Source of the DNA: Devosia sp. 2618
Lineage (GTDB): Bacteria; Pseudomonadota; Alphaproteobacteria; Rhizobiales; Devosiaceae
Length of the DNA stretch: 64,000 bases
Assembly: GCF_040546815.1 (NCBI RefSeq)
Contig: NZ_JBEPOO010000001.1
Location: forward strand, 3,100,001-3,164,000
Reading direction: 5' to 3'
Shown: in pieces, positions 1 through 11,129 of the stretch
Position numbering within the stretch: position 1 is the stretch's first letter
Layout of the letters: every line of letters starts with the position of its first letter
Made by a program: the position numbers and the translations under genes
Notes under the pieces: model-generated
The model's database searches: none
The model's input: the letters and a program-made list of their open reading frames with translations, nothing else
Told to the model about the DNA's origin: nothing

Positions 1-982
1 CGCCAACGCCACCAGCATAGAAAAAGTCCTCCATGTAAGCGGTTCCGCTCGGCTTCAAATCGACCAGCACTGGCGTATCGTCCGAGATTGCGTTGAGACG
101 ATCCATGTCGATCTTGAAGCCAAGACGTCCCGCAATTGCTGCGAGATGGATAATCGCGTTCGTCGAGCCGCCAATGGCCAGCAGCATCCGAACTGCGTTG
201 TCGATCGTAGCCTGGGTGACTATTTGATCAATCGTGCGACCTGACGCAACGAGCTCCATTGCCGCCTTGCCTGTTGCCTCTGCAGCCCGCAAGCGATCCG
301 CATGGACAGCCGGAATGGCGGCCGTTCCCGGCAGCATCAGGCCCATGACTTCAAGTAGGATGGACATGGTGCTGGCGGTGCCCATAACGGCGCAGGTTCC
401 GGCGGTCGTTGCGAGGGAGCTTTCCACCTGGTCGATCTGCTGATCGGATACTTCGCCTGCCCGATAGCGTCCCCAGAAGCGGCGGCAGTCGGTGCACGCG
501 CCGAGCCGTTCCCCCTGGTAGCGCGACGTCATCATGGGACCCGTCGACACCACAATTGCGGGTTTTCCTGCAGATGCCGCCCCCATGACCAGAGCCGGCA
601 AGGTCTTGTCGCAGCCACCGACAAGAACAACGGCATCCATAGGCTGTGCGCGCACCATCTCCTCGACATCCATAGCCATCAGATTTCGGAAAACCATGCT
701 AGTCGGACTAAGGAAAACCTCGCCGAGTGACGTCACCGGGAAGTCCAAAGGCAAGCCACCGGCGGCCAGCACCCCGCGCTTGACCGCGTCAACCAGCTCT
801 GGCACCCCTCGGTGGCAATTGTTAAACCCACTGGCAGTCCAGGTAATGCCGATGGTCGGACGGCTCAGCATGTCGCGAGAGTAGCCCATGGACTGCGCAA
901 ACGAGCGACGCAGATAGGCGGCAAAACGCGGATCGCCATAGTTTGTCAGGCCGCCGACGATGCCTTTAGCAGTCTCTTCCAT
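1..982 (-). CDS. IlvD/EDD-family sugar-acid dehydratase, partial (C-terminus beyond the window)
   Basis: This is the N-terminal 327 residues of a dehydratase that would turn an aldonic acid into a 2-keto-3-deoxy acid using a [2Fe-2S] cluster and Mg2+. Visible on the minus strand are the three cluster-cysteine contexts of the family (FNNCHRG near residue 55, GGCDKTLP near 120, AGTCAVMG near 195) and the GSTNAIIHL motif that follows. The start ATG at 982-980 begins MEETAKGIVG. It lies 33 bp downstream of the paralogous dehydratase on the same strand, so the two are probably co-transcribed. Family membership is secure. The sugar-acid substrate cannot be read from sequence; pentonate or hexonate are the usual choices for this branch rather than the branched-chain amino acid substrate of true IlvD. 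The protein runs off the left edge of the window. Confidence 0.88.
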   Translation of the reverse strand, partial: MEETAKGIVGGLTNYGDPRFAAYLRRSFAQSMGYSRDMLSRPTIGITWTASGFNNCHRGVPELVDAVKRGVLAAGGLPLDFPVTSLGEVFLSPTSMVFRNLMAMDVEEMVRAQPMDAVVLVGGCDKTLPALVMGAASAGKPAIVVSTGPMMTSRYQGERLGACTDCRRFWGRYRAGEVSDQQIDQVESSLATTAGTCAVMGTASTMSILLEVMGLMLPGTAAIPAVHADRLRAAEATGKAAMELVASGRTIDQIVTQATIDNAVRMLLAIGGSTNAIIHLAAIAGRLGFKIDMDRLNAISDDTPVLVDLKPSGTAYMEDFFYAGGVG

Positions 983-1014
983 TGGAGCTCACTTAACTTA
1001 ACAAATACAAAGAA

Positions 1015-2760
1015 CTAGGAGAACCTGGCTTCAGGGTCAGGGGTGTTGCCGGTTCGCGCCAGAAAATCGAGATCGCAACCGTCATCGGCTTGCAGCACAT
1101 GCTCGCTGAACAATGCGCCATAGCCTCGCCCGTAGTGAGGAGGTGGAGGGGTCCAGAGTGCCCTTCTGCGGGAAAGCTCATCCTCAGGCACCAGCAGGTC
1201 CAAGGTGCTATTGGTTGCGTCCAGACGGATCAGATCTCCATTCTGAACCAGGGCAAGCGGCCCACCCACCCTGCTCTCGGGACAAACGTGCAGCACGCAA
1301 GTCCCGTAGCTAGTCCCGCTCATGCGCGCATCTGAAATCCGAACCATGTCTCGGACCCCTTGCTCCAGAAGCTTCTTGGGGATCGGCAACATACCCCATT
1401 CCGGCATGCCGGGTGCCCCCACCGGCCCCGCGTCCTGCAGCACTAGAACACTGTCCTTGGTTACTTCCAGGTCAGGATCGTCTATCCGCGCGAGCATATC
1501 TTTGAAGTTGACAAAAACGACGGCGGGCCCCGTGTGTTGCAGCAGGTCGGCATGTGCGGCGGCACGCTTCAATACAGCTCCACGCGGCGCCAAATTACCG
1601 CGAATAACGACAAGCCCCCCTGAAGGGTAGACCGGATTGGAAACGGGCCTGATGACATCATCTTCGTAGGTTTCAGCGTCGACAATGGCCTCGCCAAGAG
1701 TGCCGCCAGTTACATTGCGGCAACTAAGGTCGAGGTGTTGATCGATGTTGCGCAACAACGCCCGCAGTCCTCCGGCATAGTAGAAGTCCTCCATGAGGTA
1801 CTGCCCGCTAGGCTGCAGGTTACAGAGAACAGGAACTTTTCCACTTGCAGCTGCGAAGTCGTTCAGATCGAGCTCAAGGTCCAAACGACGAGCCATCGCG
1901 ATCAGGTGGATCAGCGAGTTGGTTGAGCCAGAAAGCGCCATGTCAGCGGCGACGGCGTTGAGAAAGCTGGATCGCGTCATGATGCGGCTTGGCTTGAGAT
2001 CCTCCCATACCATCTCAACAATTCGACGACCCGCATTGCTGGCCATCTGAGAATGGGTTGAATCCACCGCAGGAATGGAGCTTGCTCCAGGCAGGGTCAT
2101 CCCCAAAACGTCGGCTAACGCAGTCATCGTGGATGCAGTGCCCATGGTGTTACATGTGCCCGGCGAACGCGCTGTGCCCTCACCAAATGCACGCCAGGTC
2201 TGCTCGTCGCTCTTGCCGGCACGGAAGTCCGCGAGCGCTTTCCATGTACTGGAGCCAGTTCCAAGATTGCGTTGCCCGCGGAAATGCCCACTCAGCATAG
2301 AACCCGCAGGAACATAGATTACGGGAATATCCATGCTGGCGGCGCCCATCAGCAGGCCCGGTGTTGTCTTGTCGCAGCCGCCCATCAAAACCGCGCCATC
2401 GAGCGGGTGTGAGCGGAGAATTTCCTCCGTCTCCATGGCAAGCAAGTTGCGATAAATCAGCGTACTAGGGCGTACATAAGTTTCACCGACACTCAATGCC
2501 GGAAGCTCTACAGGAAACCCTCCCGCCTGCCAGATACCGCGCTTAACCTCTTCGACGCGCTGCGGAAAATGAGTGTGGCAAGAATTCAGATCAGACCAGG
2601 TGTTGATGATGCCAACGACAGGCTTTCCTTGAAAATCCTCACTCGTGTAGCCCATCTGCTTGGTTCGGTAGGACTTGTGATTGCCAGGCTGCCCTTCTGC
2701 CCCAAACCATCGCTGGCTACGGAGATCCGCCAGAGTCATCGTTCTGCTGTTCTGCGACAT
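1015..2760 (-). CDS. IlvD/EDD-family sugar-acid dehydratase (full length)
   Basis: A 581-residue dehydratase of the IlvD/EDD superfamily, close in length to characterised L-arabinonate/D-xylonate dehydratases. Cluster cysteines sit in NSCHTHF, GGCDKTTP and PGTCNTMG, and GSTNSLIHL follows. The chosen start, MSQNSRTMTL at 2760, lies where family similarity begins; the reading frame is open further upstream to 2847 but that extension looks non-coding. No clear Shine-Dalgarno precedes 2760. It is the first gene of a leftward unit with the second dehydratase and is divergent from the aldolase gene at 2954. The shared 190-bp region carries a putative operator. The likely reaction is dehydration of an aldonate to a 2-keto-3-deoxyaldonate. 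The exact substrate is unknown. Confidence 0.9.
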   Translation of the reverse strand: MSQNSRTMTLADLRSQRWFGAEGQPGNHKSYRTKQMGYTSEDFQGKPVVGIINTWSDLNSCHTHFPQRVEEVKRGIWQAGGFPVELPALSVGETYVRPSTLIYRNLLAMETEEILRSHPLDGAVLMGGCDKTTPGLLMGAASMDIPVIYVPAGSMLSGHFRGQRNLGTGSSTWKALADFRAGKSDEQTWRAFGEGTARSPGTCNTMGTASTMTALADVLGMTLPGASSIPAVDSTHSQMASNAGRRIVEMVWEDLKPSRIMTRSSFLNAVAADMALSGSTNSLIHLIAMARRLDLELDLNDFAAASGKVPVLCNLQPSGQYLMEDFYYAGGLRALLRNIDQHLDLSCRNVTGGTLGEAIVDAETYEDDVIRPVSNPVYPSGGLVVIRGNLAPRGAVLKRAAAHADLLQHTGPAVVFVNFKDMLARIDDPDLEVTKDSVLVLQDAGPVGAPGMPEWGMLPIPKKLLEQGVRDMVRISDARMSGTSYGTCVLHVCPESRVGGPLALVQNGDLIRLDATNSTLDLLVPEDELSRRRALWTPPPPHYGRGYGALFSEHVLQADDGCDLDFLARTGNTPDPEARFS

Positions 2761-2877
2761 AGGAGTTCCAGTCAGTATTTTTCGGCCCCGGCTCGCCCAA
2801 ACCAGGCGGCGCTGTGAAGCGCGACCATTCACCAAGTGCGGTCGCAACGCTTACACTCACAATCCAAGTCGTCGGCA

Positions 2878-2902
2878 TTATTGTCAACAAAATAGTTGCC
2901 GA
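2878..2902. promoter_or_regulatory. Putative operator A, shared with 8352-8375
   Basis: The sequence contains TTGTCAACAAAATAGTTG, between the divergent dehydratase and aldolase genes. A near copy (TTATCAACAAAAAAGTTT) lies in the divergent region between the transporter operon and the GntR regulator. The two agree at most positions over about 24 bp while the flanks differ. TTGTCAACAA resembles the short GT..AC half-sites bound by FCD-type GntR proteins. The inference is that the regulator at 8394 binds both. Confidence 0.55.
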
Positions 2903-10700: not shown

Positions 10701-10712
10701 CCTCGAAGCGGG

Positions 10713-11050
10713 CATGGTGGACAAGGACGACGCCATTGCGAAGGAGCGTATGGGTGAGCCTAAAGCATTGCGAGATCAGGCTACCGCTGACGCCGAGCGC
10801 ACGCAACTCGCGCTCGGCAGTTCATGCAATCAGGGCGTCAGCCCGATAAGCTCAAGGGCTTAGCCCGCAAGGCGCTCGAACGGACACGACTCGACGATGG
10901 CAGCTACCGTCGCGCCCCCCAGCGCGCGCTGGCGCAGCGCGTCGAGGTCGGCGACGACGAGGTTCGCACACCGGATCGAAGTCGGCATTGTTGCCAACGC
11001 TGGTCGCCGCTTCGAGCGTAGAAACGGCGGCGTTCATCGTTCTGTACTGA
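10713..11050 (+). pseudogene. Decayed serine site-specific recombinase (C-terminal remnant)
   Basis: Translating the three forward frames in turn gives a degraded copy of the C-terminal tail common in alphaproteobacterial serine recombinases. From 10713 one frame reads DDAIAKERMGEPKALRDQ. From about 10842 a second frame reads DKLKGLARKALERTRLDDG and RALAQRVEVGDDEVR. From about 10978 a third frame reads LVAASSVETAAFIVLY and ends at TGA 11048-11050. At least two frameshifts separate the blocks and the catalytic N-terminal domain is absent. It ends two bases before the tRNA-Arg 3' end. Recognition of the family is from memory of the tail sequence and would be confirmed by a protein search. Confidence 0.65.
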
Positions 11051-11052
11051 AA

Positions 11053-11129
11053 TGGCGCACCCGACACGATTCGAACGTGTGGCCTCTGCCTTCGGAGGGC
11101 AGCGCTCTATCCAGCTGAGCTACGGGTGC
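11053..11129 (-). tRNA. tRNA-Arg (anticodon CCG)
   Basis: Read on the minus strand, this gives a complete 77-nt cloverleaf. The acceptor stem is GCACCCG/CGGGTGC, the D-arm GCTCAGCTGGATAGAGC, the anticodon arm CTGCC-CTCCGAA-GGCAG (anticodon CCG, codon CGG), the T-arm has GTTCGAATC, and the 3' CCA is encoded. Its 3' end faces the recombinase remnant, the usual geometry of an island attachment site. Confidence 0.95.

What the first reader, a model, noticed from the sequence alone, without database searches (positions are those of the whole stretch)
1..11129. Accessory sugar-acid island anchored at tRNA-Arg(CCG) by a decayed serine recombinase
A dense block of catabolic genes with its own importer and regulator ends in a fragmented serine-recombinase tail. 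Its stop codon lies two bases from the 3' end of a tRNA-Arg gene. Beyond the tRNA, core housekeeping genes begin. Codon choice and intergenic AT content on the island side look less GC-extreme than in the core. Together this suggests tRNA-targeted integration followed by loss of the integrase.
Basis: partly seen in the sequence, partly recalled or inferred. Interest (0 to 1): 0.7.

Follow-up and report, generated by a model that had tools for sequence, protein, structure and literature searches.

The report
Self-splitting serine integrase remnant at tRNA-Arg
A sugar-acid gene island in a Devosia-like bacterium ends in the wreck of a DNA-integrating enzyme whose intact relatives dock at the very end of arginine or serine tRNA genes and, on docking, appear to swap the tail of their own gene for backwards tRNA sequence.

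Summary
Window 10702-11052 is the frameshifted C-terminal fifth of a large serine recombinase abutting the 3' end of tRNA-Arg(CCG). The catabolic block beside it is lower in GC and sporadic: its ALDH has a close ortholog in 1 of 75 genus genomes, the window's own. The genus is inferred to be Devosia.

Intact relatives show what the fragment was. In 66 of the 80 named loci returned, the recombinase overlaps the 3' end of an intact tRNA on the other strand: Arg 53, Ser 12, Glu 1. Target amino acid follows the recombinase tree; arginine isoacceptors do not. Eleven elements with both ends found share a core TGGCG plus a base that matches the tRNA. Recombination thus falls at the CCA end, and no long tRNA repeat is expected.

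At the far end, right after the core, lie 15 in-frame codons and a stop that look like the recombinase's own C-terminus. So attP appears to lie inside the integrase gene. One natural protein with the joined tail was found.

The tail's role is untested.

The parts
10702..11052 (+). Decayed C-terminal part of a large serine recombinase (residues ~422-543 of 554) in three frames
   Evidence: tblastn pieces; translations; alignment with intact relatives, 83-84% identical DNA
11051..11058 (+). AATGGCGC, the place of the presumed right attachment core (core common to resolved relatives: TGGCG+N)
   Evidence: By comparison with both-ended relatives; here only one end is present
11053..11129 (-). tRNA-Arg(CCG), intact; its 3' CCA end faces the recombinase remnant
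   Evidence: ARAGORN
9261..10700 (+). Aldehyde dehydrogenase, full length, ends 2 bp before the remnant
   Evidence: Pfam and NCBIfam; orthologs
8394..9122 (+). GntR/FCD regulator
5218..8272 (-). Amino-acid-type ABC importer: ATPase 5218-5997, binding protein 6016-7062, permease 6902-7558, second permease-like ORF 7568-8272
   Evidence: the last ORF was named by reading, not scanned
3653..5190 (-). FAH-type hydratase (weak match) 3653-4405 and SDR 4465-5190
2681..3610 (+). KDPG/KHG aldolase
2..2847 (-). Two IlvD/EDD dehydratases: 1015-2847 (passes the L-arabinonate dehydratase cut-off) and 2-982, which runs on beyond the window's left edge
11407..18952 (.). Right flank: SLT transglycosylase 11407-11976 (+), histidine kinase and KaiC-like ORFs 11995-15935 (-), PolA to 18952 (+). 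Names other than SLT by reading
   Evidence: SLT; transglycosylase present in 11 of 11 relatives that were chosen by matching there

Best explanation
The window holds the right-hand stump of an integrated element whose large serine recombinase inserted it at the 3' terminus of tRNA-Arg(CCG), now abutting accessory sugar-acid genes at a hypervariable site. In intact relatives attP appears to lie inside the recombinase gene, 15 codons before its stop. Recombination at a TGGCG+N core with the CCA end of the tRNA leaves the tRNA whole, puts the recombinase body beside it, and leaves the last 15 codons at the far end of the element; the recombinase then reads into antisense tRNA. Shown by sequence: position, core, coding look of the far-end tail, inheritance of target. 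Inferred: this recombinase does the cutting; excision restores the gene; in the window's lineage most of the element was deleted and frameshifts followed; the catabolic genes came by horizontal transfer, carrier unknown.
For: Remnant homology. Intact homologs at the same tRNA in Devosia sediminis and others. 66 of 80 loci end at an intact tRNA 3' end at an offset of -8 to -10, ten more at a tRNA 3' arm. Target amino acid needs 3 changes on a tree of 103 recombinases, 79 labelled (shuffles 11-14); Arg isoacceptors 19 (shuffles 16-26). Two different inner elements in one 99.99% identical outer element share both junctions. In 11 both-ended elements the sixth core base agrees between ends and, in the ten with a tRNA, is C for Arg, G for Ser, T for Glu; the recombinase frame reads the core TGG as a codon in 11 of 11; tail identity 80.5% against 25.4% after the stop; dN < dS in 7 of 7 pairs computed. 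Tail motif 9 times on the recombinase strand, 0 on the other, 0.0 in shuffles. A natural joined C-terminus, P0128.
Against: Four of 80 loci show no tRNA sequence; two of these cannot be judged (contig end, Ns). 71 of 80 loci show no tail in the DNA held. Nine of the 11 elements were picked by the tail motif, so having a tail is no independent result for them. In the Erythrobacter inner element the tail lies about 1.4 kb inside, not directly at the junction. L077 has cores but no tRNA. The joined protein P0128 lacks a normal N-terminus. In the window no far end, no empty site and no transfer genes were found.
Confidence: 0.8

Rival explanations
1. The sugar-acid genes were cargo of this very element, and an internal deletion removed its transfer genes and most of the recombinase.
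For: Direct abutment at 10700/10702; low GC; ALDH sporadic in genus and order; the site is otherwise variable.
Against: No transfer genes, no far end, no core-plus-tail within 100 kb to the left; related ALDH-dehydratase pairs in five other loci do not sit by a recombinase or tRNA in the stretches tested: three loci were tested for both, two only for synteny.
Confidence: 0.35
2. A separate event, such as a tyrosine-integrase island or homologous exchange at the hotspot, brought the sugar-acid genes and overwrote an older serine element, leaving its tail.
For: Tyrosine elements do use this tRNA class: 45-49 bp tRNA 3' fragments in G003 and the outer elements of L017 and L030.
Against: No tRNA 3' fragment over 12 bp in the 100 kb left of the window; no integrase gene was recognised among the window's left-hand CDSs scanned.
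Confidence: 0.45
3. The 15-codon far-end stretch is only a conserved DNA arm of attP, not a coding tail.
For: Serine integrases need attachment sites of roughly 50 bp (recalled), and the stretch begins at the core.
Against: TAA, TAG and TGA at one position, identity falling to chance right after the stop, dN below dS in the pairs computed, joined natural protein. Against a pure coding reading: variable columns are not confined to third codon positions (8, 4, 10 at positions 1, 2, 3).
Confidence: 0.12
4. The recombinase is a bystander and another enzyme of the element integrates it at the tRNA.
For: Tyrosine integrases are the common tRNA-targeting enzymes, and one was found in the outer elements of L017/L030.
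Against: Fixed offset of the recombinase to the tRNA, target inherited with the recombinase, and a 2.6-kb element (L083) with room for little besides the recombinase.
Confidence: 0.05

Closest known systems
phiRSM1/phiRSM3 Int of Ralstonia filamentous phages (PMC3816273, PMC4471427; passages seen)
   Same: [quoted passage not shown] its 13-base core begins TGGCGG, as do the tRNA-Ser loci here.
   Different: A small resolvase/invertase-type enzyme by those papers; attP lies between orf14 and orf15, not inside int; one tRNA-Ser rather than Arg, Ser and Glu.
Mycobacterium AICEs with serine recombinases at tRNA-Leu (PMC3218068; passages seen)
   Same: Serine recombinases of conjugative elements at a tRNA gene; the authors call this rare.
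   Different: Actinobacterial AICEs with another tRNA; no self-splitting int gene appears in the passages seen. Their sequences were not compared here.
trb-type ICEs of Mesorhizobium, ICEMlSymR7A-like (PMC8627217; passages seen)
   Same: trb transfer genes and use of tRNA genes; [quoted passage not shown]
   Different: 73 of their 79 elements use tyrosine integrases; sites of the serine cases are in a supplement not read.
Archaeal SSV-type ('suicidal') tyrosine integrases (recalled; the one paper tried was not held)
   Same: attP inside the integrase gene, so integration into a tRNA gene splits it.
   Different: Tyrosine enzymes in archaea; there the gene is cut into large pieces, here only the last 15 codons are exchanged.
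Mycobacteriophage integration-dependent immunity (recalled, no source read)
   Same: attP inside a coding sequence, so that integration changes a protein's C-terminus.
   Different: There it is the repressor gene, and as far as I recall the function is known.

Membership tests
Large serine recombinase | Resolvase + Recombinase + zinc-ribbon domains | tested here: met
   Met in the four intact relatives scanned (L031, L007, L083, L160)
Large serine recombinase | The window copy itself carries these domains | tested here: not met
   Only the part behind the domains remains
tRNA-terminus-targeting lineage described here | Recombinase 3' end overlaps a tRNA 3' end on the opposite strand | tested here: met
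   66 of 80 named loci, ten more with a tRNA 3' arm; in the window the remnant reaches the same point
tRNA-terminus-targeting lineage described here | Far-end core followed by the coding tail | tested here: not met
   Not found in window or 100 kb to its left; found in 11 relatives
trb-type integrative and conjugative element | trb transfer genes beside the recombinase | tested here: not met
   Absent left of the window; present (2 or more of 7 genes) in 51 of 80 relatives
Classic tRNA genomic island (tyrosine type) | Direct repeat of the tRNA 3' end at the far boundary | tested here: not met
   No match over 12 bp in 100 kb
phiRSM-type serine integrase | attP outside the int gene; small enzyme | tested here: not met
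   Relatives are large enzymes with the core inside the reading frame; phiRSM facts from passages
SSV-type (suicidal) integrase | attP inside the integrase gene | tested here: met
   11 of 11 both-ended relatives read the core in frame, tail at the far end; the defining feature is recalled
SSV-type (suicidal) integrase | Tyrosine recombinase | tested here: not met
   Serine recombinase domains
SSV-type (suicidal) integrase | Integration inactivates the enzyme | not testable with these tools
   Needs an activity assay

The most novel reading that the evidence does not exclude
The tail exchange is a switch: the circle-form enzyme, ending in a conserved EDDNYVYAIAL-like tail, and the integrated form, ending in antisense tRNA, differ in activity or stability, so the element reads its own integration state from the C-terminus of its serine integrase.
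Probability: 0.4. Interest if true: 0.75.

Novelty: new variant of a known kind. Interest (0 to 1): 0.6.

Why it matters
A 2011 survey (PMC3218068, passages) called serine recombinases at tRNA genes rare. Here one lineage, with 407 relatives confirmed in one collection, sits at tRNA-Arg in most of the 80 loci returned and at tRNA-Ser or Glu in the rest of those with an intact tRNA. Using the shared CCA end would explain how one enzyme type serves several arginine isoacceptors, and the short core would explain why a search for long tRNA repeats misses it. A serine integrase whose conserved tail is detached on integration makes a clear question testable: does the tail control the direction or lifetime of recombination?

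Tried and rejected
Anticodon-loop crossover: suggested by half-tRNAs; rejected for the serine element once the 45-47 bp repeats of L017 and L030 were traced to an outer element with a tyrosine integrase. The tandem cases L016, L037 and L078 were not resolved; their next element was not identified.

Empty site in the genus: not found. Left of tRNA-Arg(CCG), 11 relatives share one protein match above 45% identity (G074/G026), though G013 and G038 share at least their last 90 bp. Right behind tRNA-Arg(ACG), 20 relatives were fetched and 19 analysed (one tRNA was not called); one protein was shared by three of them.

tRNA repeat to the left: none over 12 bp. Far end of the own element: none; a 15-bp match at window 14547 lies on the wrong side of the tRNA, without the tail, and was taken as chance; AATGGCGC itself occurs 33 times in the 164 kb, so its presence means nothing. 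IMG/VR scans for the outer tRNA flank and for the far-end tail found nothing. My pattern for half-tRNAs failed and was redone. The 652-kb spacing of a tRNA-like repeat in L072 was not pursued. In the second joined-tail search 12 of 13 hits did not carry the tail, and in the first at most one of 19 did (P0121, a doubtful variant).
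Full report
THE OBSERVATION. tRNA-Arg(CCG) lies at 11053-11129 on the minus strand. Left of it, 10702-11041 translates in three frames into the last fifth of a large serine recombinase: residues 422-469, 466-510 and 513-535 of a 554-aa protein at 85, 76 and 87% identity. Frameshifts and a short deletion separate the pieces. The homology begins two bases after the ALDH stop. A longer but also broken copy lies elsewhere in the same genome, with no tRNA beside it; remnant and second copy are 87% identical and share a 7-bp deletion.

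THE CATABOLIC BLOCK. Two IlvD/EDD dehydratases (one above the L-arabinonate dehydratase cut-off), a KDPG aldolase, a weak FAH-type match, an SDR, an amino-acid-type ABC importer, a GntR/FCD regulator and an ALDH. GC3 is 0.57-0.68 for these 11 CDSs and 0.66-0.80 for four CDSs right of the tRNA. The ALDH has a match at E <= 1e-150 in 1 of 75 genus genomes, the window's own, and at E <= 1e-190 in 12 of 397 genomes of the order, own included; the best two others are 79 and 74% identical. In five other loci examined the ALDH is directly followed by a dehydratase most like the window's leftmost one; in the window the two are about 8 kb apart. In a 15.7-kb DNA search of 75 genomes the listed matches outside the own locus are separate genes (ABC ATPase, permeases, dehydratases), in part neighbours of each other; the list was cut. 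So the block is accessory; its tie to the recombinase is adjacency.

THE SITE. Eleven relatives, chosen because they match at the tRNA/transglycosylase region, all keep the transglycosylase, but left of the tRNA they share one protein match with each other and only distant paralogs with the window's side. Contig lengths equal those of Devosia sediminis and Devosia faecipullorum records, so the genus is Devosia by inference. Devosia sediminis has an intact recombinase (96% identical to the pBH3a protein) at the tRNA with the transglycosylase and PolA beside it. Among loci examined, eight genus genomes other than the window's, D. sediminis included, have a recombinase of this family ending at tRNA-Arg(CCG) (33-96% identical to the pBH3a protein, one of them partial), and five at tRNA-Arg(ACG). 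In all, 41 of 75 genus genomes have some homolog at E <= 0.001.

THE FAMILY. A scan of genome contigs confirmed 407 relatives and returned the best 80. In 66 of 80 the recombinase end overlaps the 3' end of an intact tRNA on the other strand: Arg CCG 32, ACG 15, TCT 4, CCT 2; Ser 12; Glu 1; offset -8 in 64, -9 and -10 in one each. Ten more show a tRNA 3' arm that then breaks off or meets the contig end. Of the last four, one meets a contig end, one runs into Ns and two have no tRNA sequence. Of 110 loci (these 80 and 30 of the genus), 103 gave an ORF of 400 aa or more; 79 of them lie at a tRNA and in all 79 the ORF stop lies beyond the tRNA's 3' end. On their tree the target amino acid needs 3 changes (the least possible; shuffles 11-14) while arginine isoacceptors need 19 (shuffles 16-26). 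The tree is FastTree with long branches among divergent rows, so single placements are not relied on. Of 12 distant genus loci (L165-L176), five ORFs end in tRNA-Met and one overlaps tRNA-Arg(ACG); six do not overlap a tRNA in this way. Of the 120 best listed of 4432 homologous proteins, 116 end in the antisense T-loop peptide [DE]SN.

WHERE IT CUTS. A Paracoccus and an Erythrobacter MAG share a 68-kb stretch at 99.99% identity from an outer element with a tyrosine integrase and its own tRNA-Arg. Different inner trb elements (83-91% alike where they align) sit at that tRNA. Both show AATGGCGC at both ends..GGGGAG-AATGGCGC-GCCGCACCG on the left..CTGA-AATGGCGC-ACCCATC (tRNA) on the right. So the crossover is at the CCA end. 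The long tRNA repeats of these two loci belong to the outer element.

THE DETACHED TAIL. At the left end of the Paracoccus element the sequence after the core reads in the recombinase frame as WRAAPGEDDNYVYAIAL and a stop; Devosia sediminis has WRTAPGEDDNYVYSVAL and a stop. A motif search then found the like in nine of the 80 loci, all on the recombinase strand and upstream, none on the other strand and none in shuffles. In the eleven elements (2.6-43 kb) the sixth core base agrees between the two ends; in the ten with a tRNA it is C for Arg, G for Ser and T for Glu; L077 has G and no tRNA. The recombinase frame reads the core TGG as a codon in 11 of 11. Stops are TAA, TAG or TGA at one position; mean identity is 80.5% up to the stop and 25.4% in the next 48 nt; dN is below dS in 7 of 7 pairs computed, of 55 possible. 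Nine of the eleven were picked by the motif, so for them the tail itself is not independent evidence; core, stops and drop of identity are. In the Erythrobacter element the tail lies about 1.4 kb inside. The other 71 loci show none in the DNA held; 51 of 80 carry two or more of seven trb genes, so many elements are probably longer than the flank. Two protein searches with predicted joined tails found one clear case, P0128, ending KWRAMADDDEHYVYAIAL on a 57-kb contig, whose N-terminal part is not a normal recombinase, and one doubtful variant, P0121.

MECHANISM. Shown by sequence: site, core, both-ended elements, a coding-like tail, target inheritance. Inferred: the recombinase is the integrase; excision restores the gene; the window's element was deleted from within and then frameshifted. 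Untested: any role of the tail. Its ending in AL recalls C-terminal degrons; that is a thought without a test.

IN PRINT. Passages of PMC3218068 call serine recombinases at tRNAs rare and name phiRSM1 besides Mycobacterium AICEs. Passages of PMC3816273 and PMC4471427 give the phiRSM core and place attP between orf14 and orf15. [quoted passage not shown] The ten searches were made before the tail was found and none asked about attP inside a serine integrase gene, so novelty in print is not established.

Noticed in passing
L008/L199 (pKPC_CAV1176) and five further plasmid records: Six plasmid records of Enterobacter and Klebsiella hold a recombinase identical over residues 1-543 to that of Devosia sediminis, in one record examined beside trb genes and resistance genes.
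   Followed up: partly
L003 (own genome, C1:3685259-3688337): A distant large serine recombinase ORF in the window's own genome reads 70 nt into the antisense strand of tRNA-Arg(ACG).
   Followed up: partly
L014, around 10150-10220: The broken second recombinase copy ends in a run of TTCTG repeats before AAATGGCGCACCC, with no tRNA behind it.
   Followed up: no
L178 and L180 (Erythrobacter MAG, Paracoccus aurantiacus): An outer tyrosine-integrase element carries a whole tRNA-Arg(CCG) and leaves the host gene's two parts at its ends, the 5' part about 190 bp beyond the carried tRNA.
   Followed up: partly
L083:8995-11588: A 2.6-kb element at tRNA-Ser has room for little besides the recombinase.
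   Followed up: no
L007:7986-8731 and relatives: A TumE-type toxin-like gene and a winged-helix gene precede the recombinase; homologs are found in 50 and 58 of 80 loci.
   Followed up: no
Genus tRNA-Arg(ACG) site, L230-L249: The DNA behind this tRNA is also highly variable; some relatives show short stretches there that look like the end of a recombinase gene.
   Followed up: no
G003:C2, 827287, 840875 and 872383: 48-49 bp copies of the tRNA-Arg(CCG) 3' part lie 13 and 45 kb from the gene, as islands of the anticodon-loop type would leave.
   Followed up: no
window 2-10700 with its left flank: ALDH and the leftmost dehydratase are adjacent in five other loci but about 8 kb apart here.
   Followed up: partly
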